Of a stretch of DNA of 64,000 nt, positions 2,078-37,664 are shown in pieces; within the stretch, counting starts at the first letter, position 1; every line of letters starts with the position of its first letter. Source of the DNA: a bacterium D16-76 (lineage in GTDB: Bacteria; Bacillota; Clostridia; Oscillospirales; Acutalibacteraceae); the NCBI GenBank assembly GCA_009917445.1, contig QZEE01000017.1:1-64000 (forward strand). The letters run 5' to 3'. Made by a program: the position numbers and the translations under genes. The notes beneath the pieces were generated by a model. That model saw nothing but the letters and a program-made list of their open reading frames with translations, was not told where the DNA came from and did no database searches.

Positions 2078-4057
2078 ATGAAAGACGGTGAAATAGTGAA
2101 TCCTGTGCTAAGTGTTAAAGAGCTGGCCGACCTTAAGGGATGCAGCCCGCAATGGATACGCAAGCTGGCCGGTGAACAGAAGTTGCATGGCCAGAAGCGC
2201 ATAAACGCCGATGGCTCTCCAGAGTGGGTGTTCCCCCTCAAAAGCCTGGAGCCCCATCTGCAGCTTAGATACTACAAGAATAAAGCCGCAGAAATGCCGG
2301 GGCTGGCTGAGTTTACAAAATCCCTGCAAAATGAGGGCAGGCCCTTTGACCATTTCAGTGAAGAGGAGCGCCAGGAAATCATCTGGTGGCAAAAGACCCT
2401 GGAGGACTGGAAAGAATACAGAAACCGCTACCCTGGGGATAAGGCCGAAGCTGACAAAAAGTTTATCTCTATCCGAGCAGAGCTTGACCCAGAGAACACC
2501 TTCTCGGTAGATACATTATACCGCAAGGAGCGCAATTTCCGCAAGCTGGGTCTGGACGGCCTGCTGGACAAGCGTGGCAAGGGCCGCAAGGGAAAAAGCA
2601 AGATCACCGAGGAAATGTGGCAGACCTTTTTGAGCTACTACCTGGACGAGGCCCAGCACCCCATCCAAAAGTGCTATGAGTACACCCGGCTCTACTTCCA
2701 GGACACGGCCCCGGAGCTGGTGGCGGATATCCCCACCTATTCCACATTCTGGCGCAGGGTGCAGAACGATATACCCGAACCCATGGAAGTGTTGGGCCGC
2801 CAAGGTCAAAAGGCTTTCCGCGACCGCTGCGCCCCCTACATACATCGCATATATGAGGAAATGGCCAGCAACGAGTGGTGGGTGGCCGATAACCACACCT
2901 TTGACGTTATCACCCAGGGCGAGAACGGCCAGCTCCATCGTCTGTACCTTACGGCCTTCTTTGACGCCAGGAGCGGGATATATACTGGGAGCCACGTCAC
3001 CACGGCCCCCAGCAGCCAGTCCACCCTGGTGGCGCTGCGCAAGGGCATCTTGAAATACGGCATCCCGGAGAATATTTACGTTGACAATGGCCGCGAGTTC
3101 CTGACCCATGACATAGGCGGCCTGGGCCACCGAAAGAAGAAACCCAAAAACGGCGAGGAGCGCTTTGAGGTACCCCCGGTATTTGAGCGGCTGGGCATAA
3201 ATATGACAAACGCCTTAGTCCGCAACGCCAAGGCGAAAATCATTGAGCGGCGCTTTAGGGACATAAAAGACCACCTTTCCCGCCTGTTCGAGACCTACAC
3301 GGGCGGCAACGTAGTGGAAAAGCCGGAAAAGCTCAAGGGTGTGCTGAAAAACGGGGAGATACCCCTGGACGCCACCTTTACCGACACGGTGGAGACCCTG
3401 CTGGACTGGTATTTCAACCAGCAGCCCTATGGCGGCGAGGTGGCCGCAGACCATGGCAAGCCCCGCCAGCAGGTCTACAATGAGAACCTGCACACCAAGC
3501 GGGTGGCCGGGGCCGAGGACTTGAACCTTATGCTCATGCGCAGCGCCAGGGTGCAGAAGGTCACCCGGCGCGGGGTGCATCTGGATATCGCGGGCCAGCG
3601 GCTGGACTACTGGAACGATGATTTCACCTTTAACTACATGGGCAAAAAAGTGTATTTCCGCTATGACCCGGACGATCTGAGCGCCGTGCGGGTGTATGAC
3701 CTGGAAGACCGCTTTATTATGACGGTGCCGGTGGATAACACAGCGGTGCTCACCTACGGGGCCAGCAAGGAAGAAGTCAAGCAGGCCATGGGCAAGGTGC
3801 GGCGGCTGGAGCGCATTACCAAAGAGGCGCTGGAGGCCAGCACGGTGCAGGCTTTTGGCAAGCGCACAGCCCTGGAGCTGGTGCTGGAGCAGGCCCTTGA
3901 TAACAAGACGGCCCGGATCATCCCGGAGGCCCGGCCCAAGGTGCTGGAGCTGCAAAGGCCCAACGAGGAGCCGCTGCTTAAAGCGGTGGGCGGGCCTGAC
4001 CTGGATGTTATGAATAGGAACGCTCTCAGAAGACAAGGAGGAACCGATAATGAGTAA
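2078..4057 (+). CDS. MuA-type DDE transposase
   Basis: A 659-residue protein, close to the 663 residues of MuA. It has an N-terminal Mu-type DNA-binding helical region (about 10-75, SVKELADLKGCSPQWIRKLA), a retroviral-integrase-like core and a C-terminal beta-barrel region. The likely catalytic triad is D271 (VADNHTFDV), D336 (YVDNGREF) and E390 (IIERRFRD), almost the spacing of MuA D269/D336/E392. It should bind the phage end sites and catalyse integration and replicative transposition. Its last bases overlap the MuB-like gene by eight, so the two are probably translationally coupled, as in Mu. Confidence 0.95.
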   Translation: MKDGEIVNPVLSVKELADLKGCSPQWIRKLAGEQKLHGQKRINADGSPEWVFPLKSLEPHLQLRYYKNKAAEMPGLAEFTKSLQNEGRPFDHFSEEERQEIIWWQKTLEDWKEYRNRYPGDKAEADKKFISIRAELDPENTFSVDTLYRKERNFRKLGLDGLLDKRGKGRKGKSKITEEMWQTFLSYYLDEAQHPIQKCYEYTRLYFQDTAPELVADIPTYSTFWRRVQNDIPEPMEVLGRQGQKAFRDRCAPYIHRIYEEMASNEWWVADNHTFDVITQGENGQLHRLYLTAFFDARSGIYTGSHVTTAPSSQSTLVALRKGILKYGIPENIYVDNGREFLTHDIGGLGHRKKKPKNGEERFEVPPVFERLGINMTNALVRNAKAKIIERRFRDIKDHLSRLFETYTGGNVVEKPEKLKGVLKNGEIPLDATFTDTVETLLDWYFNQQPYGGEVAADHGKPRQQVYNENLHTKRVAGAEDLNLMLMRSARVQKVTRRGVHLDIAGQRLDYWNDDFTFNYMGKKVYFRYDPDDLSAVRVYDLEDRFIMTVPVDNTAVLTYGASKEEVKQAMGKVRRLERITKEALEASTVQAFGKRTALELVLEQALDNKTARIIPEARPKVLELQRPNEEPLLKAVGGPDLDVMNRNALRRQGGTDNE

Positions 4058-5009
4058 GGTTTACAACAGCGCATTGCAGGCAAGGGTGGAGCAGTTTTTG
4101 CAAGATAAGCAGATCAGCCAGGCCAAGGCCGCCCCCCTTATGGGTATCAGCCAGACGGCCCTTTCCCAATACCGCCGCAGTATGTACGACAACGGCGACA
4201 TTTCGGCCCTGGAAAGCAAGCTGGAGGAATTCTTCAAGGCCCAGGACGAACAGGACGCCAGCACGGAAAAGGCCCTGCCCTATAAGCCCATCCAGGACTA
4301 TATCCCCACCTCCATTTCCGAGGACGTGTACAAGCTGATCCGCTATTGCCAGCTGGAAAAGGGCATGGTCATTATCCACGGTGACGCAGGCATCGGCAAG
4401 ACCAAGGGCGCGGAAAAGTTCGTAAGGGACAACCCCACCAGCAGCGTGTACATACAGGCCACCCCCAGCATCGGCACCCTGGGCAACCTTTTGAAGATGC
4501 TGGCGCGGGCCTTGCGGGTGCCGGAGAGCCGCAGCAAGCTGGAGCTGGCCCTTTCCATCCGGGAGAAGCTGGAGGGCACCAACCGGGTTATTATCATTGA
4601 CGAGGCCCAGCACCTGCAGCTGCGGGCGCTGGAGGAGATACGCACATGGACAGACCCCAACCCCATCACCGGGCAGCAGGGCGTGGGCATTGCGCTGATC
4701 GGCAACACCGAAACCTATACCCGCATGGTGGGTAAGCAGGAGGCCCGGTTCGCCCAGCTGTTTTCCCGTATCCGCATGAACCGCTTTTACAGCACCCACA
4801 AGGTCACAGCCGAGGACGTAAAGGCCCTGTTCCCCAAGCTGGCCGAGGAGGGGCAGAAAAAAGAGGCCAGCTTCCTGCATGGTATCTGCCAAAGCAAATG
4901 GGGCGTCCGGGGCGCGGTGAATGTCTATAACAACGCCGTAAACAACGAGGACATTACCTATACTGGGCTTTATAACATGGCCCGCAATATGGGTATAGGC
5001 GTGGTATAA
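4050..5009 (+). CDS. MuB-type transposition target ATPase
   Basis: A 319-residue AAA ATPase. The N-terminal about 60 residues carry an HTH (SQAKAAPLMGISQTALSQYR), as in MuB. The Walker A motif GDAGIGKT lies at 111-118 and Walker B VIIIDEAQ near 180. A C-terminal helical domain follows. MuB coats target DNA, stimulates MuA and gives target immunity. It starts inside the end of the transposase gene after an AAGGAGG site. Assignment is firm from motifs plus context. Confidence 0.93.
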   Translation: MSKVYNSALQARVEQFLQDKQISQAKAAPLMGISQTALSQYRRSMYDNGDISALESKLEEFFKAQDEQDASTEKALPYKPIQDYIPTSISEDVYKLIRYCQLEKGMVIIHGDAGIGKTKGAEKFVRDNPTSSVYIQATPSIGTLGNLLKMLARALRVPESRSKLELALSIREKLEGTNRVIIIDEAQHLQLRALEEIRTWTDPNPITGQQGVGIALIGNTETYTRMVGKQEARFAQLFSRIRMNRFYSTHKVTAEDVKALFPKLAEEGQKKEASFLHGICQSKWGVRGAVNVYNNAVNNEDITYTGLYNMARNMGIGVV

Positions 5010-12960: not shown

Positions 12961-13224
12961 ATGGGATATACAAAGCTTTACAGCGGGTGCAGGGCCTGCC
13001 CCTACCGGGAGACCTGCAGCCATAAGCTGCTGATAGGCGAGGGGCTTTTGGAGCCTGCGGCCGCCCCCCTGGTGCAGCCCTTGATCCAGCCCATACTGCA
13101 GCCCCATGATTACCGCCATGTCAAAATAGACGCAAATACTACTATTACCATTGACCTGGAAAAGCTTAAGCAGCAGCTGGAGGAAAGCCATTTCCCGCCC
13201 ATGCTGTTCCAAGGGGGTGCATAG
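12961..13224 (+). CDS. Small cysteine-containing hypothetical protein
   Basis: An 87-residue protein with an N-terminal cysteine cluster (SGCRACPYRETCSH) and a C-terminal amphipathic helix (DLEKLKQQLEE). It has a strong TAGGAGG site, ten bases after the TerL stop. It may bind zinc or an iron-sulfur cluster, judging by the cysteines alone. Role in packaging is only positional. Confidence 0.6.
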   Translation: MGYTKLYSGCRACPYRETCSHKLLIGEGLLEPAAAPLVQPLIQPILQPHDYRHVKIDANTTITIDLEKLKQQLEESHFPPMLFQGGA

Positions 13225-13225
13225 T

Positions 13226-14608
13226 TTGCCTGTACTTTACATGGAGCGCTCGGCCCTGGGGGGGCTTACCGAGCGGGACATCAAGAAAATCATAGAGGAA
13301 AACGAGGGCGGCACCAAGTACCAGCGCCTGGAGGGGTACTATGTGGGAGACCATGATATCCTGCGGTACACCAAAAAGGACAAGGCGGTGCCCAATAACC
13401 GGCTGGTGAACAATATGCCCCGGTATATCACGGACACGGCGGTGGGGTACTTCCTGGGCAAGCCGGTGACCTATTCCAGCCAGGACGATGCTTTCCTCCA
13501 GGCCCTGCAGGACATTTTCGACTATAACGATGAGCAGGACGAAAATACAGAGCTGGCCAAAACCGCCAGCATAGACGGCAGCTGCTTTGAAATGCTGTAC
13601 ATGGATGAGGACGCCATGATCCGCTTTGTGAAGGTGGCCCCCGGCAGCTGTGTCATGATCTACGAGACCGGCTACAGCACCCCCATGGCGGCCCTGCGGT
13701 TTATCCATTCCAAGGACAGGGACGGCAACCCCATCAAAAAGGTGGAGTTCTGGACTTCCACCGAGTGCTGGTATTTTATAAGCCTGCACGGCGGCCCCCT
13801 GGAGCTTACGGATATTGTGGAGCACTACTGGCAGGACGTGCCCTTTATTGAATATATCAACAATGAGGAGCGCATAGGGGACTTTGAGGGGGTTATCACC
13901 CTGGTGGACGCCTATAACCGGGTGCAGAGCAATACCGCCAACTTTTTCCAGTACAACGATGAGGCCATCCTTAAGGTGCTGAAAATGGGGGAAGTTACCC
14001 CCCAAAACATAAAAGACATGAAGGAGGCCGGGGCCATCCTGCTGGAGGATGGCGGGGATATCCAGTGGCTTATCAAAGAGGTGGCCGACACTCCCCTGGA
14101 AAACTACAAGCAGCGCCTGCGGGAGGATATGCACCTTTTTTCCAATGTCCCCAACCTTAACGATGAAAACTTCGGCGGGAACCTGTCCGGGGTGGCTGTG
14201 TCCTATAAGCTGTGGGGCCTGGAGCAGGTGTGCGCTATAAAGGAGCGCAAGTTCAAGCGGGCGCTGCAGCGGCGCATTGAGCTTATCACCACCATGCTGA
14301 ATATCCAGGGCGGGCACTATGATTACCGGGATATCGACCTGCAGTTTAGGCGCAACCGGCCCCAAAACCTCCTGGAGAGCGCCCAGATCGTCACCACCCT
14401 TTCCGGGGAGCTTTCCAGGGAATCCCGGCTGCAGATGCTGCCCACGGTGGATAATGTGCAGGATGAGCTGCAGAAGCTGGAGGAGGAAAAGAAAGCGGAC
14501 ATGGGGGACTTTGGCGGCTACAATGCCCTGGCTAACGCCCTGCAGCAGGCCCAGGCCCCGGAACAGCCCCAGCAGCCGCCCCCCGTCCCTGCTGCAGGAA
14601 GGGGATGA
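13226..14608 (+). CDS. SPP1-type portal protein
   Basis: A 460-residue portal protein of the SPP1 Gp6-like family: VNNMPRYITDTAVGYFLGKPV near the N-terminus, the conserved FNSxx-like core replaced by YNRVQSNTANFF, and the downstream wing region FGGNLSGVAVSYKLWGLE. It forms the dodecameric ring at the capsid vertex through which DNA enters. The start is TTG 13226, eight bases after AAGGGGG and one base after the previous stop. Mu itself has a different (DUF935) portal, so the head module is of another origin. Confidence 0.88.
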   Translation: MPVLYMERSALGGLTERDIKKIIEENEGGTKYQRLEGYYVGDHDILRYTKKDKAVPNNRLVNNMPRYITDTAVGYFLGKPVTYSSQDDAFLQALQDIFDYNDEQDENTELAKTASIDGSCFEMLYMDEDAMIRFVKVAPGSCVMIYETGYSTPMAALRFIHSKDRDGNPIKKVEFWTSTECWYFISLHGGPLELTDIVEHYWQDVPFIEYINNEERIGDFEGVITLVDAYNRVQSNTANFFQYNDEAILKVLKMGEVTPQNIKDMKEAGAILLEDGGDIQWLIKEVADTPLENYKQRLREDMHLFSNVPNLNDENFGGNLSGVAVSYKLWGLEQVCAIKERKFKRALQRRIELITTMLNIQGGHYDYRDIDLQFRRNRPQNLLESAQIVTTLSGELSRESRLQMLPTVDNVQDELQKLEEEKKADMGDFGGYNALANALQQAQAPEQPQQPPPVPAAGRG

Positions 14609-21563: not shown

Positions 21564-23996
21564 TTGGGCGTTATCAAGGGCGCAATCTCCATTAAAGACA
21601 ATATGTCGGCCACCCTGCGCAGCATACGGCAGGAGCAGAGCGCTTTCCGGCAGGATGTGGCCAAGACCAAGCAGGAGCTGAAAGCCACCTGGGATAAAAA
21701 ACGCACGGCACGGCTGGACGCTACGGCGGCCCATAAGGCTATGGAGAGCCTAAAGCAAAAGGCCCAGCCTCTAAGAAAGAAAATCGTCATGGCAGCGGCC
21801 CTTAAGGACGCTGCCAGCGACAAAATACGCAATGTAAGCAATAAGGTCAAAGGGGTGGGCAAGCTGGTGGCCCGCCCCTTTGTGAAACTCAAGGACGGGG
21901 CCACCTCCCTGATAAAGGGCGTCGCCAATAAGGTGAAATCCGTGGGGAAGCTGGTGGCCCATGCCACGGTGAAGTTGAAAGACGGGGTGACGGCGGGGCT
22001 TTCCAAGATAAAGTCCGGCCTTGCGGCTGTAGGCAAAAACGTGGTGATACCCGTGACCCTGGCAGCGGCCACTATCACCATGGGGGCCATCAGCCAGGGG
22101 GCCAAGCTGGAACAAAGCCTGGGGGGCGTGGATACGCTCTTTAAGGACAGCTCCAGCGTGGTCAAGGCGAACGCCGCCTCGGCTTTCAAAACGGCTGGCC
22201 TGTCCGCCAACGAGTACATGGAGCAGATCACCAGCTTTTCGGCCTCCCTGATTGGCAGCTTAAGCGGGGATACCGCCAAGGCCGCCACGGTGGCCGACAT
22301 GGCCATGGGCGATATGTCCGACAACGCCAACAAATTCGGCACGGACATGGAGTCCATCCAGAACGCCTACCAGGGTTTTGCCAAGCAAAACTATACCATG
22401 CTGGACAACCTTAAGCTGGGGTATGGCGGCACCAAGGAGGAAATGCAGCGGCTGCTGCAGGACGCCCAGAAGCTGACCGGCACCGAGTACAATATCGACA
22501 ACCTGTCGGACGTGTACAACGCCATCCACGCCGTACAGAACCAGCTGGGGGTGACCGGCACCACGGCAAAAGAGGCCAGCGAGACCTTTAGCGGCTCTTT
22601 TTCAGCCATGAAAGCCGCTGCCCAGAACCTTTTGGGCAATATGGCCATTGGCGGGGACGTGACCGGCTCCATGCAGAGCCTGGTGGACACGGCCTCCACC
22701 TTCCTGTTTAACAACGCCATCCCCATGATAGGGCGGGTGTTATCCTCCCTGCCGGGGGCGATAAAGTCCGGCATCAAGTCCGCAGGCCCGAAAATCAAGG
22801 CGGCGGGCGGCGAGATCGTCAAGAGCCTAAAGGCCGGTATCAAGGGTATTTTGCCCTCCAGCATGGGCGGGCTTGTCACGTCTGTCTTTGACGGCCTGCT
22901 GCCCAAAATAGGGCCAGCCTTTGGGAAGATAACCTCGGGACTGGGCTCCATGCTGAAAACCGCTTCCCCCTATCTTGTTTCCTTTGGGGAGGCGGTCATA
23001 AGCGGCATAGGCGGGGCCATCGACTTTGCGGCAGCAGCCATGCCCACACTGGTGAGCGCCTTTGACACGGTGCTGCCGGTCATAGCCAGCATTGCGGGCG
23101 GCTTCCAGACCCTTATGCCATCCATTATGAGCTTTGGCGGCGCGGTCATGGGGGCCATCCAGCAGGTGGGCACGGCGGTCATGCCGGTCATTGCCAGCAT
23201 AATGGACACGGTGCAGTCCGTGATCCCGGCTGTGCTGCCGGTGCTGGAAACGGTAGTCACACAAATAGGCTCTATCATAAGCGCGGCGGCCCCGGTCATA
23301 GGCGGGCTGGTGGAGGGCATCGGGCAGGTCATATCGGCCCTGGCCCCTGTGTTCCAGACCATCTTTGACGGCATCGGCCAGAAGGTGGGCACAGTGCTGG
23401 AGTTTGTGGGCAGCAAAATGGGGTGGATACAGCAGATCATAGGGCAGGCAGCGCCGCTGATTGCCAGCGTGCTTTCCTCTGCGTGGTCGGTCATTTCCCC
23501 CATACTGGACATGGCGATCAGCGTGTTCCAGCTGCTTTTCAACGTAACGCAAACTGTCTTTAACGGCATTTTGGGTGTGGTGCAAAACGTCTGGAACGCC
23601 ATCCAGCCCATTATCTCCTCTGTGGCGGACGCCCTTTCCTGGGTATCCAGCAAGGTGAGCGGGCTGTTTGGGGGCATATTCGGCGGCGGTGGAGGCGGCA
23701 GCGTGGGTGCGAACGCCGATGGCACCAACAACTGGCGGGGCGGCCCCACCTGGGTGGGCGAGAAAGGCCCGGAGCTGGTAGACCTGCCCCGTGGCAGCCG
23801 GGTGCTGCCCAATAAGGAAAGTGTGCAGGTGGCCAGGGCCGCCGCCCAGCCCCAAAGGGGCGGCACGGTGATACACCTTACCATTGCCAAGCTTGCAGAC
23901 CAGATCATTGTGCGGGAGGACGCCGACATCGACCGCATAGGCGAGGCGGTGGCTAAAAAGGTGATACTGGCCATAGAGAACCTTGTGCCAGCGTAA
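21564..23996 (+). CDS. Tape measure protein
   Basis: An 810-residue tape measure. The N-terminal 100 residues are helical and charged. Repeats of (P/A)xVKLKDG(A/V)T occur at about 108-150. A MuGam-like helical domain (SLGGVDTLFKDSSS, NEYMEQITSFSASLIGS) follows, then a long Ala/Gly/Val hydrophobic part with several membrane-type helices, and a C-terminal GPELVDLPRGSRVLPNKES motif. It sets tail length and may enter the cell membrane. Start TTG 21564 after GGAGGGGG overlaps the chaperone extension stop. Confidence 0.9.
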   Translation: MGVIKGAISIKDNMSATLRSIRQEQSAFRQDVAKTKQELKATWDKKRTARLDATAAHKAMESLKQKAQPLRKKIVMAAALKDAASDKIRNVSNKVKGVGKLVARPFVKLKDGATSLIKGVANKVKSVGKLVAHATVKLKDGVTAGLSKIKSGLAAVGKNVVIPVTLAAATITMGAISQGAKLEQSLGGVDTLFKDSSSVVKANAASAFKTAGLSANEYMEQITSFSASLIGSLSGDTAKAATVADMAMGDMSDNANKFGTDMESIQNAYQGFAKQNYTMLDNLKLGYGGTKEEMQRLLQDAQKLTGTEYNIDNLSDVYNAIHAVQNQLGVTGTTAKEASETFSGSFSAMKAAAQNLLGNMAIGGDVTGSMQSLVDTASTFLFNNAIPMIGRVLSSLPGAIKSGIKSAGPKIKAAGGEIVKSLKAGIKGILPSSMGGLVTSVFDGLLPKIGPAFGKITSGLGSMLKTASPYLVSFGEAVISGIGGAIDFAAAAMPTLVSAFDTVLPVIASIAGGFQTLMPSIMSFGGAVMGAIQQVGTAVMPVIASIMDTVQSVIPAVLPVLETVVTQIGSIISAAAPVIGGLVEGIGQVISALAPVFQTIFDGIGQKVGTVLEFVGSKMGWIQQIIGQAAPLIASVLSSAWSVISPILDMAISVFQLLFNVTQTVFNGILGVVQNVWNAIQPIISSVADALSWVSSKVSGLFGGIFGGGGGGSVGANADGTNNWRGGPTWVGEKGPELVDLPRGSRVLPNKESVQVARAAAQPQRGGTVIHLTIAKLADQIIVREDADIDRIGEAVAKKVILAIENLVPA

Positions 23997-25948: not shown

Positions 25949-26388
25949 GCGTTTTCCCCTTTATCGACCCGTCTGCCCTGGGGCCGGAGGAGAGCACAGA
26001 GCTGCCCCTGTTCCGGGAGTATGCCTATGACTTCCAAAACAACTGCCTGCTGCTGAAAAGCGGGCAGACCTACCTGGTAGAGGGTAACGAGGCCCTGCGG
26101 ATATGGATATACAAGGCCCTTACCACCGAGCGGTTTCGGTATACGGCCTATGACGCAGACTTTGGCAGCGAGATAGATACCCTCATCGGCAGCCCCCTGA
26201 ATAGTGATATAGCAAAGTCTGAATTAAAGCGGTTTATCACCGAGGCTTTGATGGTAAACCCCTATATTGAGGAGCTGGGCAATTTCCAGATAACCCAAAC
26301 GGGCAGCGGGGTAAAGGCAGAGTTTGACTGCACCACCATTTACGGGCCGGACAAAATAGCATGGGACTTTAAGGGGGTGAAACTGTAA
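25945..26388 (+). CDS. DUF2634 baseplate wedge protein (XkdS-like)
   Basis: A 147-residue protein with REYAYDFQNNCLLLKSGQTYLVEGNEAL and TERFRYTAYDADFGSEID, the diagnostic core of the GpW/Gp25-like XkdS family. It forms part of the baseplate wedge. It overlaps both neighbours by one to four bases. Confidence 0.85.
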   Translation: MSVFPFIDPSALGPEESTELPLFREYAYDFQNNCLLLKSGQTYLVEGNEALRIWIYKALTTERFRYTAYDADFGSEIDTLIGSPLNSDIAKSELKRFITEALMVNPYIEELGNFQITQTGSGVKAEFDCTTIYGPDKIAWDFKGVKL

Positions 26389-27494
26389 TGAGTGATTTAG
26401 ACTTTAGTGCCAGCGCGGTGCTACAGCGGATGCGGGAAAGCCTTAAGAATGACGCCAACCGCATGGAGGGCGGCTTCTGCATGGACAACCTGCAGGCGGT
26501 GGCGGAGGAGATATCCAGGCTTGACACCATGGAGGTCATGCCCATCCCGGACAGGGTGCTGCTGGACACAGCCGAGGGGGAGTTTTTAGACCGCAAGGCC
26601 CTGGACTATAACGAAATCAGGAACCCTGCCACAGCAGCCACGGGCACCCTGCTCTTTACCGGGGACGTGGGCGCGGCCATCCCCCAGGGCACCGGGGCGC
26701 TGTACGGCGCTCTGGTGTTTGAAACAACCACCCCGGCCCGGATCGGCGCGGACGGCACCTGCCAGGTAGGGGCTAAGTGCCAGGAAACCGGCCCAGCGGG
26801 CAACGCCCCGGCAGGGGCTATAGCAGCCCTGCAGGCATCGGTGGACGGGGTGAAATCCGTTACTAACCCCCAGCCCTTTGGGGGCGGCACCGGGGCCGAG
26901 AGCGATGATTCTTTCCGGCAGCGCATTTTTGACAAGATACGGCGGCCCATCACCAGCGGGAACCGCAACCACTTTATCTATTGGGCCAAGCAGGTGTCCG
27001 GGGTGGGCGGGGCCAAGTGCCTGGGGGCGGAAGTCTGCGGGGCGGGCAAGGTGAAAGTCATTGTTTTGTCCGACCAATACAAGGCCCCGGACAGGGTGGT
27101 GCTGGAAAACGTGAAAGCCCATATCCAGGAGGAACGGCAGATCGGCGCGGACGTGACGGTGGCGGGGGCAGCCCCCAAAGCCGCCCATATCGTGGTGGAG
27201 GTGCAGGCGGCCCCTGGCTACAACATAGCCGACATACGCCAGAACGCCATAGCGGTGCTGCAGGCATATGTGGACAGCGTAAACCGGGAGGACTTCGACC
27301 AAGCCCCGGCCCGGGGCGATGAGGGCCGGGAAAGCACCATAAGCTACTACCGCATAGGCGACCTTATTTTTGGCGTGGAGGGCGTGGCCGATATCGTAAG
27401 CTATACCCTAAACGGCGGCCTTGCCTCCCTTTCCTGCGGGTATGGGGAATACTTCACCCTGGAGGAGGTGGACATCCATGCCCCTGACAGATGA
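26388..27494 (+). CDS. Baseplate J-like protein (XkdT)
   Basis: A 368-residue baseplate J family protein. The N-terminus has RVLLDTAEGEFLDRKALDYN, the middle GTGAESDDSFRQRIFDKIRRP, and the C-terminus GVADIVSYTLNGGLASLSCGY. It builds the wedge that connects sheath and fibres. It overlaps the next gene by 17 bases. Confidence 0.88.
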   Translation: MSDLDFSASAVLQRMRESLKNDANRMEGGFCMDNLQAVAEEISRLDTMEVMPIPDRVLLDTAEGEFLDRKALDYNEIRNPATAATGTLLFTGDVGAAIPQGTGALYGALVFETTTPARIGADGTCQVGAKCQETGPAGNAPAGAIAALQASVDGVKSVTNPQPFGGGTGAESDDSFRQRIFDKIRRPITSGNRNHFIYWAKQVSGVGGAKCLGAEVCGAGKVKVIVLSDQYKAPDRVVLENVKAHIQEERQIGADVTVAGAAPKAAHIVVEVQAAPGYNIADIRQNAIAVLQAYVDSVNREDFDQAPARGDEGRESTISYYRIGDLIFGVEGVADIVSYTLNGGLASLSCGYGEYFTLEEVDIHAPDR

Positions 27495-28623
27495 TTTCAT
27501 GCTGCCCCGCAGGGTGCGGACTATGGAGCAAATGGCCGACCTGCTCCAGGCGGAGGAGGCGGAAATCAACCAGGCCCAGCGAACCATAGACGCTATGGCG
27601 GCCCAGCTGGCGGTGTGTACCAGCACTTTCCTCCTGCCCCGGCATGAGCGCATATTCGGCCTGCCGGTCAATACCGGGGAAAGCCTGGAGGTGCGGCGGG
27701 CCAGGGTGCTGGCCCGCCTTAACACACGGGGCGTCACTACGGTGCAGGCCATACGGGAGCTGGTGCAGATTATAACGGGCCGGGAGGGGGAAGTCACCGA
27801 GCATTTTGCGGGCTATGCCTTTTCTGTGACTGTCCGCCTGCTTTTCCCGGACGCCACCAAAGACCTGGGGGAGCTTATCCGGCAGATAGACGAAATAAAG
27901 CCCGCCCACCTGATTTTCGACACCATCGGGGCGGTGCAGCCGGTGGTGCTGGAAAACCGAAACCGGCTGCTGTTCGTGAGCCAGTCCCTGCGGCTGCGGG
28001 TGAGCAACCTGGGTGAGGGGGCCATATACCTGGACGGGCGCAGAAGCCTGGACGGCACCTGGCAGCTCGTGCAGAGGTTTACCAGGGGCGCGGCCTTTTC
28101 CCAGCTCCTGCTCTCCATGGGGGCCAACAACTGCTTAAGCTGCGGGCAGGCCCTTAGTTGGGCTGTCCGGGCCATGGCCCATATGCAAAACAAGGTGGGC
28201 CTTGCCAGTGTGCAGGTGTGCCGCTACGGCGCAAACAACCTGGGGATAGAGGAAACCCTGCTAAACGGCAAGCGCCCCTTAGACGGGGGCTGGTATCTTG
28301 CGGCCTCCTTCAGCAAGGGGGTGGGCCTGTCCCGTTTCCTTTTGGGCTATAAGGCCACGAACGGGCAGGACGCGCACGGGGGCATACACTTACGGGCACG
28401 GGCATACAGCCCCTGTAAAGGGGCTGTAAAGGCCGTTTATGGGGCCATGGGAAAGAATGTACAGACAGCACGGCAGCAGGGCTTTACAACCGCCTGCGGG
28501 GCCGTAAACGCCCAAAGGGCGGCAGGCTCCGTCACCTCCCGGATAGACCGGGGGCTGGACGGGGCTTTTTACCTGGACGGCGTAAAGAAACTGAACGCCG
28601 GGACAATAAGGAGTGAATTATAA
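27478..28623 (+). CDS. DUF2313 baseplate protein (XkdU-like) with long C-terminal extension
   Basis: A 381-residue protein. Residues 1-165 form the XkdU/DUF2313 domain (SLEVRRARVLARLNTRGVTT, GYAFSVTVRLLFPD). XkdU itself is about 200 residues; here a further 200 contain two (YLDGR)RSLDGTW / GKRPLDGGW type repeats at about 190 and 280 and end FYLDGVKKLNAG. The extension probably anchors fibres. ATG 27478 follows GGAGGAGGTGG. Confidence 0.8.
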   Translation: MPLTDDFMLPRRVRTMEQMADLLQAEEAEINQAQRTIDAMAAQLAVCTSTFLLPRHERIFGLPVNTGESLEVRRARVLARLNTRGVTTVQAIRELVQIITGREGEVTEHFAGYAFSVTVRLLFPDATKDLGELIRQIDEIKPAHLIFDTIGAVQPVVLENRNRLLFVSQSLRLRVSNLGEGAIYLDGRRSLDGTWQLVQRFTRGAAFSQLLLSMGANNCLSCGQALSWAVRAMAHMQNKVGLASVQVCRYGANNLGIEETLLNGKRPLDGGWYLAASFSKGVGLSRFLLGYKATNGQDAHGGIHLRARAYSPCKGAVKAVYGAMGKNVQTARQQGFTTACGAVNAQRAAGSVTSRIDRGLDGAFYLDGVKKLNAGTIRSEL

Positions 28624-29026: not shown

Positions 29027-31020
29027 ATGGCAGAGGAATATTATAAGATACCAAAAGACCCGCAGTACAGGGCCGCCGCGATCCGCAAGCTGCAGGACAG
29101 CGACCCGGCCAGCGCCACCCTGATTTTTAACCCCCTGATAGAGGCAATGCTGGAAAGCCTGGCCCATGTGCAGGTACATAAGGCGGCACTGGGGGAGGAC
29201 GGCAAGGTGGACGCCAGCCAGCTGCCGGAAATGGACGCCTCCAATTTTACCTATGACGGCCAGCCGTTGGATGAATTTCTGGATGAGGTAAAGGAGTCCG
29301 TTTCCGTTGACCGTGGCATCCCCCGGACGCCATACCAGTTTGGGAGCCTTACCTATAACGGGGAAGTGCAGAAACCCGTCTGGAATGGCTTTGACCCTGC
29401 TGCCATGCTGATAAGCGGGATACAGGAGGCCACGGATGCAGGCACATATGAGGTCATATTCTCCCCCAAACAGGGCTACTATTGGACGGATAACGGCGGC
29501 AACGAGAGCCGGAGCAGCTTCTGGACAATAGGCCGTATCGTGGTAGAGGTGCCCAGCCAAAGCAATGCGCCGGTTTACAATGGGGAAAGCCAGTCCCCCA
29601 CATGGGAGGGCTACCAGCCGGATATTATGACTTTAGCCGGGGACACCAGCGGAACCGGTGCCGGGGAGTATGGGGCAATTTTTATCCTGGATAACAACTA
29701 CCAATGGCCGGACGGCACGGTGGGCAGCCGGGATGTCACCTGGGCCATAGGGCGGGCCACAATAGCCTCTGTGCCCAGCCAGAGCGGCAGCCTCACCTAT
29801 ACCGGGGAGGAACAAACCCCGGCCTTTGAGGGCTACAACGCCGCGCAGATGGCTATTGCGGGGGCGCAGGCAGGCACCAATGCGGGCACCTACAAGGTAC
29901 AGTTTACCCCGGACGAAAACCATCAATGGCCCGATGGAACCACGGGGGCCAAAGAGGTAAGCTGGGCAATAGCCCCGGCAGCTGGCAGCATAACCCTGGA
30001 CAAGAGCAGCCTGGAGCTGCGGGCCTCCCTTATGTCGGGGGTTATCACGGTAACAAGGCCGGGTGACGGGGCAATTACTGCCAGCTCCGGCAATACCAGC
30101 ATAGCCACGGTAAGTGTGGATGGGAACGAGGTCACGGTGACGGCAAAGGCCAAAGGCTCGGTGAATATCACCATAGCGGTGGGGGCGGGCGCAAACTATA
30201 CGGCCCCCCAGAGCAAGACCGTAAGCGTGACTGTAACCCTGCCCACCACGGTGCTGAACGATAACAGCTGGGCCACCATCCAGGACGTGGCGGCCTCGGG
30301 CAATGCCGCCAATTATTGGAGCGTGGGGGATACCAAGAATATTACTATAAATGGGAAGGTGGGGAATTTCACCTTTGCCAATTTAGCCATCCAGACCTAT
30401 ATCATAGGGTTTGACCACAACAGCGCCAGGGAGGGCACAAAGACCATCCATTTCCTGATAGGGAAAATCGGCACGGCAAAGAGGTGGCGCTGTGCGATAA
30501 CCAGTTTGGTAATGAGCAGACTGCTGCAGGTTATTTCCACATGAATAGCAGCCGGACAAATTCTGGCGGGTGGGATAGCTGCTATATGAACAAGACGCTC
30601 CTAAACGGTGCCAGCAACAGCCTGCTGAAAGCGCTGCCCAGCGAGCTGCAGGCAGTGATCCAGCCGGTGACCAAGTATACCGACAACACGGGAGGCGGCT
30701 CCAATACGGCATCCTATGTAACAGGCAAGCCTTGCAAGCTGTTCCTGCTGGCAGAGTTTGAGGTGCAGGGCACAAGGAGCTATGCAAATAGCGCGGAGCA
30801 AAACTATCAGCAGCAGTATGCCTATTTTAAGGCAGGCAACCCAAAGATTGCTAATCGACACACCGCAGTAACGTCTGCGGTGTGGTGGTGGCTGCGCTCC
30901 CCTCGTTACAACAACACTAACACTTTCTGTGGTGTGAACACCGATGGCTCTCCTAACTATGCCAGTGCCTCTTGGAGTGCAGGCGTTCGCCCCGGCTTCT
31001 GCGTATCGGCGGCAGCCTAA
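29027..31020 (+). CDS. DGR target: repeat-rich tail fibre adhesin with variable C-type-lectin-like end; frameshifted near 30475
   Basis: The start frame (505 residues to 30544) has an attachment domain, three MBG-like repeats (GxLTYxGExQxPxxxGY ... AGTYxVxFxPxxxxxW, about residues 105-325) and a Big-2-like domain (ITLDKSSLELRAS, about 325-405). The protein then leaves frame at GGCACGGCAAAG (30470-30481). In the -1 frame the domain continues sensibly (GKEVALCDNQFGNEQ through TSAVWWWLRSP to PGFCVSAAA, stop 31018-31020). One missing G restores a single protein of about 664 residues. The C-terminal domain is DUF6273/lectin-fold type and its last 43 codons are the DGR variable repeat. It should bind the host receptor. 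Confidence 0.85.
30873..31001 (+). repeat. DGR variable repeat (VR)
   Basis: 129 bases matching the template at 31707-31835 without gaps. There are 12 mismatches, each at a template adenine: 30904, 30905, 30917, 30923, 30931, 30932, 30941, 30958, 30961, 30962, 30965 and 30996. Eight residues change, all from template Asn codons (AAT/AAC) to Arg, Thr, Thr, Gly, Thr, Tyr, Ala and Ser; the last mismatch is silent. The GC-rich 3' part (30966-30995) is the likely IMH, the point where mutagenic homing begins. Confidence 0.97.
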
Positions 31021-31036
31021 TCGTTTTTTCTATCCA

Positions 31037-31054
31037 GGGGTGCGAAAGCACCCC
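31037..31054 (+). promoter_or_regulatory. GAAA-loop hairpin downstream of VR, likely DGR target-site element
   Basis: GGGGTGC (31037-31043), GAAA, GCACCCC (31048-31054): a perfect seven-pair stem with a GAAA tetraloop 35 bases after VR. In the Bordetella phage BPP-1 DGR a stem with a GAAA loop just past VR is needed for efficient homing. A second hairpin, ACCGCC/GGCGGT with GTAA loop, follows at 31106-31121. They could alternatively act as a transcription attenuator for the fibre message, but no T-tract follows. Confidence 0.75.
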
Positions 31055-31166
31055 GTCCCCAGGACAGCAGGCCCAGCGGGAGCAGGCCCTTACGCCCTTC
31101 CCCATACCGCCGTAAGGCGGTCGCGCAAAATCGCAAAAAATGGCACTTTCCCCCTTTGGCAGAATA

Positions 31167-31175
31167 TGGTATAAT
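31167..31175 (+). promoter_or_regulatory. Extended -10 promoter for the DGR cassette
   Basis: TGGTATAAT is a consensus extended -10 element 34 bases before the avd start; no good -35 is seen. It would transcribe avd, the template RNA and the reverse transcriptase independently of the late operon, so the retroelement could be active in the lysogen. Confidence 0.6.
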
Positions 31176-31208
31176 GGGCAGCAGAATAGCGGAAAGAGGT
31201 GATTCTTT

Positions 31209-31673
31209 ATATCGGTCTTAAAGGACAAGCGCACGGTTAGCAAAGCGGATTTTATAAATGTGGCCCATCAAATATTTGTAGAAACCATGGCTTTTCTAAC
31301 CCGGCTCTCGGCCCGGTACTCCCGGCTGCTGGCAGAACCAACGGCAAAGCTGGCCGGGGAGGTGCTGGACGAAGCCGAAAAGGCAAACAGCATATACCCC
31401 TCGGACGAACAGCGCATAAGGCTGCGCAAAGCCCATTTGCTGGAAGCGCGGGCCTCGCTTATGGCCCTGGATGTGCGGCTGGCCCTGTGTTATGAGGTTA
31501 TCATGCAGAACCCGCAAGGGGCCTTTACCAACTCGGCAGGGCAAAACGTGCCGCCAGGAAAGGCAGAGGACAAGCTTGAAAAAATGGCACAAAGCCTAGG
31601 CGGATTGATAGACCGGGAAAATGACCTGATAAAAGGTGCGCTGGAATCCCTGGGCCGAAAAAAGAAAGCCTGA
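31209..31673 (+). CDS. avd: DGR accessory variability protein (Avd), apparent ATA start
   Basis: A 154-residue four-helix-bundle type protein. The family core is clear: AFLTRLSARYSRLLAEPTA, EKANSIYPSDEQRIRLRKAH, EARASLMALDVRLALCYEVI and NPQGAFTNSAG. Avd forms a pentamer that binds the reverse transcriptase and the template RNA. Family members begin MSVLK(D/S)KRTVSK; here the same residues SVLKDKRTVSK are preceded by ATA at 31209, six bases after GGAAAGAGGTGA. The only orthodox alternative, GTG 31260, removes 17 conserved residues and has no RBS. The start is therefore unusual. Confidence 0.88.
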   Translation: MSVLKDKRTVSKADFINVAHQIFVETMAFLTRLSARYSRLLAEPTAKLAGEVLDEAEKANSIYPSDEQRIRLRKAHLLEARASLMALDVRLALCYEVIMQNPQGAFTNSAGQNVPPGKAEDKLEKMAQSLGGLIDRENDLIKGALESLGRKKKA

Positions 31674-32048
31674 CCTGTTCTTTGGGTGTATCTCTGGAAA
31701 CTCGCTGTCTGCGGTGTGGTGGTGGCTGCGCTCCCCTAATTACAACAACAATAACAATTTCTGTAATGTGAACAACGATGGCTCTCCTAACAATAACAAT
31801 GCCTCTTGGAGTGCAGGCGTTCGCCCCGGATTCTGAAACGCATAGGTCAAATGGAGTACCGAAAGGGAAAGACGACCTTTTCAGAAGGAGAGATACTTCC
31901 CGGTCTTTAAGGCCGAAAGTGCCCTTTGACGCCCTTGCACGGACGCTGCTTGCATGGCGGGTGGATGTGCCCTATCCCGTTTCATGTGCAGGGGCAAAGC
32001 AGATTAGACGGCACCCTACAAGACATCTGCTCGGAGGAGCGAATAATT
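31674..32048 (+). ncRNA. DGR template RNA region (avd 3' flank, TR and TR-RT spacer)
   Basis: No credible gene lies here. It holds the template repeat at 31707-31835 and 213 bases of spacer before the RT start. In BPP-1 the RNA spanning the avd end, TR and about 140 bases of spacer is the specific RT substrate and self-primes cDNA synthesis. By analogy this region is a functional RNA. The RBS GGAGG at 32033-32037 lies at its end. Its fold cannot be proven here. Confidence 0.75.
31707..31835 (+). repeat. DGR template repeat (TR)
   Basis: Donor copy for VR (30873-31001). It would encode a run of Asn codons (AAY) at the variable positions, the codon choice that maximises amino-acid diversity on A mutagenesis without creating stops. 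It has 31 adenines; 12 of them differ in VR while the other 98 bases are identical. The 5' 31 bases contain no adenine. Confidence 0.97.
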
Positions 32049-33230
32049 ATGACCAGTGAGGAGCGCCGGGAGGCGCGTTACCAGCGCCGCAGGGCAAAAC
32101 GTGCGGCAAATAGGCAAAAGCGGTGTGAGGGGCTTGGCCCTATCGGGAAAGTATTCTCATACCGAGAAATGTTCAAGTACGGCAGGAAGTGCTGCAACGG
32201 GGTGCGCTGGAAACAGTCTGTGCAAAACTTTGAAATGCACCTGTTTTCCGGCACAGCCAAGCGCCGCAGGCTGGTGCTGGAGCAGAGGTGGAAGCCTATG
32301 AAATGCTCCCACTTCACCCTGCGGGAAAGGGGCAAGGTGCGGCCCATAGATGCGCCCCATGTGTCGGACAGGCAGGTGCATAAGACCCTTTGCAATAATG
32401 TGCTGGTGCCCCTGTACGGCCCCAGCATGATAAAGCACAACGGGGCCAGCCAGAAGGGCAAGGGCCTGCATTGGCATTTCCGGGAGCTTAAGGAACAGCT
32501 GCGCTGGCATTACCGGCGCTATGGCAGGCAGGGCGGGGTGCTGCTTATGGACTTAAAGCAGTTTTTCCCCAGCGCCCCCCATAAGACCATTTACCAGCGC
32601 CACCAGCAGCTGATACCAGGCCCGCATTTGAGATGGCTTGCGGATACCATCATATCCCACTCCCCGTGCCCCACGCCGGATCGGGGTATGCCCCTGGGGG
32701 TGGAACCCAGCCAGCAGGAAATGGTGGCCCTGCCCAGCGCTGTGGACAACTGGCTCAAGTGCCAGAAGGGCATAAAGTGCATGGGGCACTATATGGATGA
32801 TTACTATATCATCCTGCCGGATATTGAACAGCTTAAAAAACTGGCCCATGAGATGGTGCGGAAGTTTGCGGCCATCGGGGTGCCGGTAAACCAGCGCAAG
32901 TGCAAAATTATCCCTTTGACAAAGCCTTTCAAATTCTGCAAGGCCAAGTTCCGTTTACTGGAAACCGGGAAAGTCATTGTCAACGGCTGCCGGGACGGGG
33001 TAAAGCGGGCGCGGCGCAAGCTGAAACTTTTTAAGAGCCAGGTGGCGGCGGGCAGGCGGGCCATGGAAGATGTAAAGCAATTCATGACCTGCCAGCTGGC
33101 CTACTACAAGAATTATAACGACCATGGGCGGGTGCTGCGGCTCTCACGGCTGTGCTATGCCCTGTTCGGCAATATTATGGGAGGTAAACCGTGTATAGAA
33201 TTACCAAAGACGGGGCCAGCCTCGGCATGA
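32049..33230 (+). CDS. DGR reverse transcriptase
   Basis: A 393-residue reverse transcriptase. Motifs in order: RGKVRPIDAP, HNGASQKGKGLHWH, LLMDLKQFFPS (catalytic Asp in domain 3), GMPLGVEPSQQ (SQ at 221-222, where group II intron and retroviral enzymes have SP or an equivalent), and YMDD at 248-251. The SQ variant and the compact size mark DGR enzymes. It copies TR RNA, misincorporating opposite adenines, and the cDNA replaces VR. ATG 32049 is preferred to the far-upstream in-frame codon because GGAGG lies 11 bases before it. Confidence 0.95.
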   Translation: MTSEERREARYQRRRAKRAANRQKRCEGLGPIGKVFSYREMFKYGRKCCNGVRWKQSVQNFEMHLFSGTAKRRRLVLEQRWKPMKCSHFTLRERGKVRPIDAPHVSDRQVHKTLCNNVLVPLYGPSMIKHNGASQKGKGLHWHFRELKEQLRWHYRRYGRQGGVLLMDLKQFFPSAPHKTIYQRHQQLIPGPHLRWLADTIISHSPCPTPDRGMPLGVEPSQQEMVALPSAVDNWLKCQKGIKCMGHYMDDYYIILPDIEQLKKLAHEMVRKFAAIGVPVNQRKCKIIPLTKPFKFCKAKFRLLETGKVIVNGCRDGVKRARRKLKLFKSQVAAGRRAMEDVKQFMTCQLAYYKNYNDHGRVLRLSRLCYALFGNIMGGKPCIELPKTGPASA

Positions 33231-33811
33231 CCGAGGCCCCCACATATATTAAGCAGGCACCCAATGGGTGCCTTGTTTTGTGCCCGGAAAACGAGGCCAT
33301 GGGCATCGCCCATGAGGGCCAGGTATACAGCCTGCTGGGCCGGGAACCGCTGCCGGACGCGCCCACCATCATGCTGGAGCAGGTGGATGGCGGCGGGGAG
33401 CTGTACAAGGCCAGCGAAACGGGCGGCATTATGTTTGTCACACTGGCCGAGGGCGGGCAGATCGACCACGCGACTGCCGCCGAGCATACCGAGCTTTTTG
33501 CCCCCTGGGCCTGCCCGGTAAGCTATGCTGTAGGGCAGATACGCCAGCACGGCGGCAAGCTGTACAAATGCCTGCAAGCCCATACTTCACAAGAGGGCTG
33601 GACGCCGGATGCGGCCCCCAGCCTTTGGGTGGCGATATCCGACCCGGCAGAGGAGTGGCCCGCCTGGAGCCAGCCCATAGGGGCGCAGGACGCATACCCT
33701 CTGGGGGCCAAGGTAAGCCATAAGGAAAAGCGCTGGATTTCTACAGCGGACAATAATGTGTGGGAGCCGGGAGTATATGGCTGGGAGGAGGCCCAGGAGG
33801 ATGGCATATAA
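33191..33811 (+). CDS. Carbohydrate-binding-module-containing tail protein
   Basis: A 206-residue protein. The N-terminal half begins YRITKDGASLGMTEAP, a pattern of small beta-rich phage tail proteins. The C-terminal half has two ChiC-type carbohydrate-binding signatures (YAVGQIRQHGGKLYKCLQAHTS and YPLGAKVSHKEKRWISTADNN), each ending in W(V/E). It may bind cell-wall glycans. GTG 33191 follows GGGAGGTAA and overlaps the RT end by 40 bases, so the two are probably translated together. Confidence 0.75.
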   Translation: MYRITKDGASLGMTEAPTYIKQAPNGCLVLCPENEAMGIAHEGQVYSLLGREPLPDAPTIMLEQVDGGGELYKASETGGIMFVTLAEGGQIDHATAAEHTELFAPWACPVSYAVGQIRQHGGKLYKCLQAHTSQEGWTPDAAPSLWVAISDPAEEWPAWSQPIGAQDAYPLGAKVSHKEKRWISTADNNVWEPGVYGWEEAQEDGI

Positions 33812-35692: not shown

Positions 35693-35760
35693 CCTGCTGC
35701 CCTTTGGTAGTCCGTCCGAGGATTCTGCCCCTTAATTTTTATGAAGGGATGGACTATGAT

Positions 35761-36519
35761 ATGGACAGCTTTATGGGTTGGATTGGCGGCAAGCGTATCC
35801 TGCGCAAGGCCATTTTAGAGCGTTTCCCCACGGACAAGGTGGAGCGCTATATTGAGGTATTCGGTGGCGCGGCCTGGGTACTTTTCGCCAAGGAGAAGCA
35901 GGCGGGCCAGCTGGAGGTCTATAACGATATCAACGGCGATTTGGTGAACCTGTTTCGTTGTGTAAAGTACCACTGTGGGGAGCTGCAGCGGGAATTTGAC
36001 TGGCTGCTTTCCTCGCGGGAGCAGTTCTTTGACTATGTGGCCCAGGCCAATATGCGGGGCCTTACAGACATTCAGCGGGCCGCCCGGTTTTTCTATGTGG
36101 TAAAGCTGAGTTTCGGCAGTGAGCACAGAACCTATGGAACCAGCAAAAAGATGGTGGACAATGCTGTCGAACGTCTTGCCTCCATAAAAGAACGCCTCCG
36201 GGGCGTGAACATAGAGCACAAGGACTATGCCGACCTTATCCGGGTATATGACCGCAAGGCTGCGCTGTTCTACCTTGACCCGCCCTATATTGGCGCTGAG
36301 GGGTACTATGACAGCCCCTTTATCCCGGATGACCACCAGCGTTTAAGAGCCGCCCTGGAGCCTCTTAAGGGCCGTTTTATCCTCTCTTACAATGACTGCC
36401 CCCAGGTGCGGGAATTGTATAAAGGCTATACCATCGAGAGGGTAGAGCGCAAGGAAAACCTGTCTGGCAGCGGGGAAAATAAAAAGCAGTATGCGGAAGT
36501 GATTATCCGTAACTTCTAA
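35761..36519 (+). CDS. D12-class adenine-specific DNA methyltransferase (Dam-like)
   Basis: A 252-residue enzyme. The N-terminal SAM-binding motif is MGWIGGKRIL with FGGAAWVLF, the catalytic motif DPPY occurs in ALFYLDPPYIGAEG, and a C-terminal ILSYNDCPQVRELY follows. It adds a methyl group to N6 of adenine. In Mu the equivalent place near the right end carries the mom DNA-modification gene, so an anti-restriction role is likely. ATG 35761 is chosen (AAGGGA 11 bases before); ATG 35749 is possible. Confidence 0.88.
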   Translation: MDSFMGWIGGKRILRKAILERFPTDKVERYIEVFGGAAWVLFAKEKQAGQLEVYNDINGDLVNLFRCVKYHCGELQREFDWLLSSREQFFDYVAQANMRGLTDIQRAARFFYVVKLSFGSEHRTYGTSKKMVDNAVERLASIKERLRGVNIEHKDYADLIRVYDRKAALFYLDPPYIGAEGYYDSPFIPDDHQRLRAALEPLKGRFILSYNDCPQVRELYKGYTIERVERKENLSGSGENKKQYAEVIIRNF

Positions 36520-36890: not shown

Positions 36891-37664
36891 CTAAAAAGTA
36901 AGAGCGCTTAAACGGTTTATTTTACCATTTAAGCGCTCTTCTTTTTTTGCAGATAATTTGAAATTTTTTTGCGGTTTTTTCGCAAAGCTACAGTAATAGC
37001 CCAGCGTGTTTTGGACAGAAAATTTATACACACCTTCTGCCATGCGCCAGCGTATGCCTGCCTTGATAGCCTCGCTTTTTTGCTGGGATTCCATCTCCGC
37101 CAGGGCAGACAGCAGGATAATCAGCAGGCTGTTTTTTCCATCGCCGGTGTGGGTGATGCCCTCTGTTTCAAATTCTACTGAAACAGGCGGCTCCAGGGAG
37201 GACAGCGTCCGCAGGTTGCCCAGGATATCTACAATATTCCTGCCAAAACGGCTGATGCTCTTGGTAAGTATCAGGTCGATTTTCCCTGCTTTAGCGTCCT
37301 CGATCATCTTTTGAAAGCCTAAGCGTTTATGCACAGTGGTGGCGCTTAAGCCCTCGTCCTGATAAATCCCTGCCATCTCCCACTGGGGGTTGCCCTCGAT
37401 GCGTTTTGTAAAATGATGGACTTGCATATCGAAGCTCCCCATCTGCTCTTCTTCCTGTGTGCTGACCCGGCAGTAGGCGGCAACACGGAGTTTTTGCCGC
37501 TCCATTTGCGGCCCTGCCTTTGGCGGAGGCGGTATCACAATCACGCCGCCGCTCCCCTGGTTTTGCCGGATCTCTTCCCATAGCTGCTGGCGCCTGCGCT
37601 CTTTCCGTCCTCTGCGGTTTTCCAAACTCTTAAACGAGTTGTCTGCCATAACTGCGAGCGTCAT
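36891..37664 (-). pseudogene. Serine recombinase, 3' part apparently lost at the prophage insertion
   Basis: The 257-codon frame has an intact resolvase catalytic domain (RVAAYCRVSTQ, catalytic S68; GIYQDEGLSATTV; ILTKSISRFGRN). Large serine recombinases of this type continue for 250-300 more residues with a recombinase and zinc-ribbon domain. Here the homologous part stops soon after GVYKFSVQNTLGYY, and the last about 20 codons are the phage-end hairpin. I infer that the phage inserted in this gene, leaving the other half beyond the left edge. It may be a remnant of an older mobile element. A 34-codon frame at 37630-37734 minus overlaps its 5' end and has a good RBS, but is doubtful. Confidence 0.7.
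36900..36951. terminator. Perfect hairpin terminator and right prophage end
   Basis: AAGAGCGCTTAAA (36900-36912) pairs perfectly with TTTAAGCGCTCTT (36928-36940), followed by CTTTTTTTG, terminating the right-end regulator. Read inward on the minus strand the arms form two TTTAAG/CTTAAA sites 21-22 bases apart, like positions 5-36. TGCA at 36948-36951 gives the CA expected at a Mu-type right end. The last codons of the minus-strand recombinase read through this hairpin, showing that its natural end has been replaced. Confidence 0.65.

What the first reader, a model, noticed from the sequence alone, without database searches (positions are those of the whole stretch)
29027..33230. Complete diversity-generating retroelement inside a Mu-like prophage tail-fibre module
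All DGR parts are present in order: a fibre protein with a C-terminal variable repeat, a target-side hairpin, avd, a template repeat and an RT with YMDD and the DGR-type SQ motif. VR and TR are 129 bases each with 12 mismatches, every one at a template adenine (31 adenines in TR). Eight AAY Asn codons are replaced. This is direct evidence of past adenine-specific mutagenic homing, diversifying the phage receptor-binding tip. The combination with Mu-type replication is notable because the phage can move its diversifier by transposition.
Basis: partly seen in the sequence, partly recalled or inferred. Interest (0 to 1): 0.95.

Follow-up and report, generated by a model that had tools for sequence, protein, structure and literature searches.

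The report
Phage fibre mutator with split target
A virus resting in a gut bacterium's chromosome carries a known kind of gene-diversifying machine aimed at the tip of its tail fibre; the combination is already known, but the machine's RNA matches a family for which I found no stated function, and the fibre gene of this copy is cut in two.

Summary
The DGR is real. VR 30873-31001 and TR 31707-31835 differ at 12 of 129 bases, all at the 31 TR adenines (P 5.4e-9), with hairpin, Avd-like protein and DGR-type RT in the stated order, in a Mu-type prophage with a 5-bp duplication (GTAAT) and TG...CA ends. Corrections: (1) the VR gene is split by a frame change between 30415 and 30544; 3 of 3 distinct close relatives have one long ORF. 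(2) The Avd gene's conserved first codon is not a standard start here. (3) One mismatch (31830/30996) is a fixed IMH*/IMH difference (VR has C at 114 of 117 such sites), leaving 11. (4) Mu-type phages with DGRs are known (Mushu, hankyphage). New: the TR-RT spacer is Rfam RT-2 (158.5 bits). RT-2 lies at the RT start in 75 of 78 loci, and its conserved box pairs and covaries with the TR 3' flank (741 of 873 cells; 363-511 when slid). I read this as the cDNA-priming duplex. New member of a known kind.

The parts
29027..30544 (+). fibre body ORF (505 aa), weak Ig-like matches; first piece of the split target gene
   Evidence: phrog_37900 E 7e-148
30484..31020 (+). second piece of the target gene: DUF6273 domain carrying the VR, in another frame; the frame change lies somewhere in 30415-30544
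   Evidence: (DUF6273 E 5.2e-19); model pLDDT 96
30873..31001 (+). variable repeat VR
30996..30996 (+). fixed IMH/IMH* site: C here, A in the TR (31830)
31037..31054 (+). target-side hairpin, 7-bp stem, GAAA loop
   Evidence: sequence
31209..31673 (+). Avd-like four-helix protein; the conserved first codon at 31209 is not ATG/GTG/TTG; the mechanical ORF begins at 31260
31707..31835 (+). template repeat TR
31831..31838 (+). TR 3' end and flank, TR strand of the proposed priming duplex (UUCUGAAA)
31879..31886 (+). spacer strand of the proposed priming duplex, ending in the A before GGAG
   Evidence: coordinates from the sequence
31842..32060 (+). RT-2 RNA (Rfam RF03077), TR-RT spacer
   Evidence: 158.5 bits (gathering 40)
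32049..33230 (+). DGR reverse transcriptase, 393 aa
28623..29015 (+). tail-collar fibre protein
27421..28623 (+). Mu Gp48-like tail protein
26388..27494 (+). baseplate J-like protein
2078..4057 (+). MuA-like transposase
   Evidence: Mu-transpos_C, HTH_Tnp_Mu_2; BalMu-1 transposase A 40%
4050..5009 (+). AAA/TniB-like ATPase in the MuB position
36993..36997 (.). right copy of the 5-bp target-site duplication GTAAT; the prophage ends ...CTACA at 36992

Best explanation
This is a DGR carried by a Mu-type prophage of an Acutalibacter-group gut bacterium. Proposed working: one transcript holds the TR followed by the RT-2 spacer RNA. The spacer folds, its box (31879-31886) pairs with the TR 3' end and flank (31831-31838), and the adenosine just before GGAG primes reverse transcription into the TR (inferred from covariation and from BPP-1). 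The RT, with the Avd-like four-helix protein, copies the TR and misreads adenines. The cDNA replaces the VR upstream of the IMH, guided by the hairpin at 31037-31054. Because priming starts beside 31830, sequence 3' of it is never transferred, so the A/C difference there stays fixed. Shown: the parts, the adenine-only differences, the fixed site, the covarying duplex, the recurring hairpin and the transposed prophage. Inferred: the priming step, the role as receptor-binding tip, and activity. In this copy the VR domain is out of frame with its fibre, so the machine edits a domain that the fibre does not carry, unless the break is a sequencing error.
Confidence: 0.88

Rival explanations
1. The frame break and the odd Avd first codon are real: this DGR copy is idle or decaying, a snapshot of a prophage under relaxed selection.
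For: Two separate lesions in one cassette; 3 of 3 distinct close relatives have the VR in one long ORF; the recognised MuA-like, GemA, gp27, portal, MuF, sheath, baseplate J, gp48, amidase and methylase domains each lie in one open frame.
Against: RT open over its full length, spacer 158.5 bits, duplex 8 of 8 paired. Two relatives have ATT/ATC at the Avd first codon, so that lesion may be harmless.
Confidence: 0.5
2. The frame break is a sequencing or assembly error and the cassette is fully working.
For: Draft genome of 148 contigs. Against G018, four other window ORFs show net gaps not divisible by three (6496-6939, 13151-14608, 21564-23996, 35704-36519), so indel noise exists in these assemblies, perhaps in G018.
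Against: Completeness 99.98 and contamination 0.2; the recognised domains of other phage genes that I scanned are not interrupted.
Confidence: 0.42
3. The two pieces are joined by programmed ribosomal frameshifting.
For: The two frames overlap.
Against: 3 of 3 distinct close relatives encode the whole protein in one frame, and 80 of 98 relatives' ORFs through the VR are at least 293 aa.
Confidence: 0.05
4. RT-2 is a leader that regulates RT translation rather than part of the template RNA.
For: Its 3' end overlaps or adjoins the RT start.
Against: Its 5' end follows the TR at a median of 10 nt, and it covaries with the TR flank, as a template RNA would.
Confidence: 0.08

Closest known systems
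Faecalibacterium phage Mushu DGR
   Same: Mu-type phage of a gut Clostridia host with RT, Avd homologue and A-specific VR (PMC5883640, passages; PMC10805732, passages)
   Different: Mushu's target is described as a Hoc-like capsid protein; here it is a fibre-module protein. Mushu is not among the 56 records matched by this RT.
Faecalibacterium phages Roos, Pioen, Taranis
   Same: nearest named phages by RT (65-66% identity); Roos has RT-2 between TR and RT and an Avd-like ORF, 66% to the window's
   Different: Taranis is listed with 'LSR' (large serine recombinase, my reading of the table row in PMC5883640), not with a transposase
Bordetella phage BPP-1 DGR
   Same: order target, hairpin, avd, TR, spacer RNA, RT; A-specific mutagenesis (literature); Avd fold; RT homology
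   Different: spacer belongs to another Rfam family (Phage_DGR); BPP-1 is not Mu-type (recalled)
Hankyphage (Bacteroides)
   Same: Mu-like transposition with 5-bp repeats plus a DGR (PMC6199706, passages)
   Different: Bacteroidota host; its RT and RNA were not compared here
Bacillus phage BalMu-1
   Same: closest named MuA-like transposase, 40%
   Different: its DGR content was not checked

Membership tests
diversity-generating retroelement | TR and VR nearly identical, differing at TR adenines | tested here: met
   12 of 12 at A
diversity-generating retroelement | RT of the DGR clade | tested here: met
diversity-generating retroelement | accessory protein Avd | tested here: inconclusive
diversity-generating retroelement | IMH/IMH* difference and hairpin after the VR | tested here: met
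   loop GAAA fits the GRNA rule in PMC3240598 (passages)
diversity-generating retroelement | target with C-type lectin fold | tested here: inconclusive
diversity-generating retroelement | target gene open in one frame in this copy (a working cassette, not a defining mark of the family) | tested here: not met
   split in this copy
diversity-generating retroelement | mutagenic homing activity | not testable with these tools
   no reads or cells
Rfam RT-2 RNA | score over the gathering cut-off | tested here: met
   158.5 versus 40 bits
Mu-type transposable phage | MuA-like transposase, MuB-position ATPase and Mu-like head and tail genes | tested here: met
Mu-type transposable phage | 5-bp target duplication, TG...CA ends | tested here: met
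   GTAAT on both sides, uninterrupted site in G027:C10

The most novel reading that the evidence does not exclude
Rfam RT-2, an RNA family for which I found no stated function, is the 3' part of the self-priming template RNA of a large DGR clade, mostly in phages of gut Firmicutes. Its conserved box forms a covarying duplex with the TR flank, which places the primer adenosine and thereby sets the IMH*/IMH boundary. Other 'RT-n' families (RT-18 in a second DGR of this same genome, over its cut-off; RT-14 and RT-17 below theirs) may be the same organ in other DGR lineages.
Probability: 0.82. Interest if true: 0.55.

Novelty: new member of a known kind. Interest (0 to 1): 0.42.

Why it matters
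As a DGR in a Mu-type gut prophage it is ordinary. What is useful is that it ties an RNA family without a function that I could find in print to DGR template RNAs, and yields a precise, testable priming duplex and fixed IMH boundary outside Bordetella. It also gives a rule for DGR finders: do not count the fixed A/C site as mutagenesis, and use RT-2 to locate TRs. The split target is a caution that a present VR is not a working fibre.

Tried and rejected
Considered and rejected: group II intron or retron RT; further VRs for this TR in the genome (only TR and VR matched). No sequence match of the target domain in the PDB (0 hits at E 0.01), of the Avd profile in the PDB (best E 0.039, an Mce/MlaD protein) or of the window's Avd in NCBIfam (0). 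The count '122 of 122 VR = C', which I also wrote in a note, is circular (the anchor required C); I use the scan that did not require it (117 sites, not de-duplicated: C 114, A 2, G 1). The counts 1566 versus 44 come from a score that favours mismatches at A and are not used as proof. The RT-2 assignment did not check contig numbers, so two loci of genome G548 may share one hit. against the wider claim: Acutalibacter phage Fontainebleau, whose RT falls near the RT-2 RTs, has no RT-n match; Toutatis and the own C44 DGR match RT-2 only below its cut-off (21.9 and 24.7 bits). I did not look for VR/TR in Perkons, VP58.5 or Fontainebleau, so calling them DGR RTs rests on RT similarity. Literature: no paper linking RT-2 to DGRs appeared in the listings (30 of 171 shown), 27, 35 and 56 or in the empty results; the original RNA-motif paper (Weinberg 2017, recalled) is not held and may already say so. 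No held paper contains both Acutalibacter and diversity-generating retroelement. PMC8144416 was searched for six terms with 0 hits. VIA-align lists are a second look at Foldseek hits; families not listed are not excluded. The Foldseek search for the Avd model did not run.

Full report
What is there. The window (G000:C58:1-64000) holds a prophage up to 36992, followed by bacterial genes (SpoVAC/SpoVAEB-like, Mur ligase, LepA). By plain identity the DGR pair is VR 30873-31001 and TR 31707-31835. They differ at 12 of 129 bases, every one at one of 31 TR adenines, P 5.4e-9; eight Asn codons are changed and one Gly codon is silent. The order is fibre body, VR domain, hairpin, Avd-like gene, TR, RT-2 RNA, RT. 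In the own genome the TR region matched only itself and this VR. The host genus holds genomes that match records titled Acutalibacter sp. 1XD8-36 and 1XD8-33 (same RT-2 coordinates and scores, titles).

The target is split. ORF 29027-30544 and ORF 30484-31020 are in different frames, yet one phage family, phrog_37900, covers the first up to profile position 448 and the second from 451. In three distinct close phages (G018 = L008; L009/L004; L010/L003) the VR lies in one long ORF. Both frames are open from 30415 to 30544, so the change lies there. Of 98 relatives' ORFs through the VR, 80 are at least 293 aa; 5 of the rest are under 250 aa without touching a locus end, and I did not examine these. 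The Avd-like gene also deviates: its first codon is ATG, GTG or TTG in 79 of 82 cassettes with that N-terminus (window included, not de-duplicated), ATT or ATC in two, and not a standard start in the window. Whether these are real lesions or draft errors cannot be told without reads. Of 33 ORFs listed against G018 (32 with aligned bases), the target and four others (6496-6939, 13151-14608, 21564-23996, 35704-36519) had net gaps not divisible by three, although each of those four is one open frame in the window; so indel noise exists in these assemblies.

The prophage is Mu-type. A MuA-like transposase, a TniB/AAA ATPase in the MuB position, GemA, gp27, MuF, gp48 and baseplate J genes are present; the closest named transposase is BalMu-1, 40%. 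The right flank occurs uninterrupted, 98% identical, in G027:C10. Searching that stretch in the own genome gave two contigs overlapping by exactly five bases. The left junction in contig C62 reads ...CCCGGTAAT|TGTAAG and the right one ...CTACA|GTAATAG. C62 ends 90 bases into the phage; by the G018 phage about 0.15 kb are missing before the window begins. The insertion apparently interrupts a serine recombinase gene.

RT-2. Rfam places RF03077 (RT-2) at 31842-32060, 158.5 bits. It is present in 5 of 5 loci scanned and 3 of 3 phages (Roos, Dulem virus 34, Roseburia phage Shimadzu). Of 78 loci fetched by RT homology, 75 have RT-2 at the RT start; the three without are L168, whose contig begins 95 bases before its RT, and L191 and L197 of one genome (the searches behind it found RT-2 over its cut-off in 48 of 48 and 25 of 26 genomes, one genome in both lists, and in 0 of 14 control genomes each). 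In the 65 loci with both, the TR ends a median of 10 nt before RT-2 (range -227 to 76). RT-2 was also sought without reference to an RT: over the cut-off in 5 of 391 genomes of the class and 5 of 29 of the genus, the own genome included in each. In one search I examined 16 RT-2 places: 7 of the 8 not assigned, one already assigned (the tandem neighbour of one of these), 5 others over the cut-off (two of them the same records as L187 and L190) and 3 below it. An RT follows all 16 (15 distinct RTs), and 10 have a VR/TR pair found with a symmetric score (146 mismatches at A, 3 elsewhere). As a positive control the BPP-1 spacer matches Rfam Phage_DGR between TR and RT (104.7 bits), and a second DGR of this same genome (contig C72) has RT-18 (76.8 bits); Fontainebleau has no RT-n match, and Toutatis and the own C44 DGR match RT-2 only below the cut-off.

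The priming duplex. Of 125 loci with a same-strand VR/TR, 122 could be anchored at a GG[A/C]T-like site near the TR end, 99 of them distinct. The bases after the site pair with a spacer box that ends in the A before GGAG (box chosen by motif alone, found in 97 of 99): 741 of 873 cells over nine positions, against 363-511 for slides of 1 to 3. Positions 3 to 8, not used for anchoring, pair in 94, 94, 90, 94, 85 and 67 of 97; position 9 in 38. Positions 4-8 pair in 88.7% with their own partner and 60.0% with swapped partners (maximum 66.0% of 2000). On the RT tree, independent pairs that differ on the TR strand differ the matching way on the spacer strand in about 25 cases, the opposite way in 0.5 and not at all in about 11, over five positions; median sign-test p per position is 0.016-0.25. 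In the window UUCUGAAA (31831-31838) pairs with UUUCAGAA (31879-31886), 8 of 8. For BPP-1 a spacer adenine primes cDNA within IMH* (PMC12875486, introduction passage; the position A56 is recalled). I infer the same here: cDNA begins beside the fixed site, so nothing 3' of it can be transferred.

Hairpin. In 74 of 99 VRs a strong hairpin lies downstream, against 0 of 99 shuffled means; over all 99 the commonest loops are GAAA 20, GGAA 19, GCAA 16 and GACA 7; two of the nearest phages (L003, L004) score low. PMC3240598 (passages) describes stems of 7-10 bp, GRNA loops and distances of 4-34 bp; the window has 7 bp, GAAA and 35 bp.

What is known. Mu-type phage plus DGR: Mushu (PMC5883640 passages; [quoted passage not shown] Faecalibacterium prophages rich in DGRs, with variation in reads: PMC11792537 (outline and one section). 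For RT-2 I found only a table row in the Rfam 15 paper (PMC11701678 passage) and no functional statement; the founding paper is not held. Verdict: a real DGR of a known kind in a known setting, with a broken or mis-assembled target, and with a well-supported new link between RT-2 and DGR priming.

Noticed in passing
G000:C44:37924-38814 (L212) and G000:C72:20451-21374 (L214, L221): Two further DGRs in the same bacterial genome: VR/TR of 95 nt (15 of 15 mismatches at A) and 138 nt (16 of 17); the second has RT-18 RNA.
   Followed up: partly
G000:C70:1874-2899 (L207), G000:C74 (L210): A 966-aa open frame that begins with a stretch looking like exonuclease III/AP endonuclease (my reading, not scanned) and continues into a group II-like RT (215 bits to TIGR04416), with a similar copy in several frames on another contig.
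   Followed up: no
2014-2080 and 10924-11008: Type II hammerhead ribozyme just before the MuA-like gene, and RAGATH-28 RNA between a NusG-like ORF and ORF 11196; a phage relative (L003, 9564-9652 -) also has a type II hammerhead.
   Followed up: no
33191-33811: Small protein with a carbohydrate-binding module (CBM5/12, E 5.3e-16) overlapping the end of the RT gene: a possible second sugar-binding virion part.
   Followed up: no
L226 (G532:C55) 272-509 and 653-895: Two RT-2 RNAs in tandem before one RT in a Spirochaetaceae metagenome bin, with no VR/TR found in the stretch held.
   Followed up: partly
36891-37664: Serine recombinase ORF on the host side that runs into the prophage end; the stretch that adjoins it in G027 lies on contig C62 of this genome.
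   Followed up: partly
10395-10895: NusG-like protein encoded in the phage, just before the packaging and head genes.
   Followed up: no
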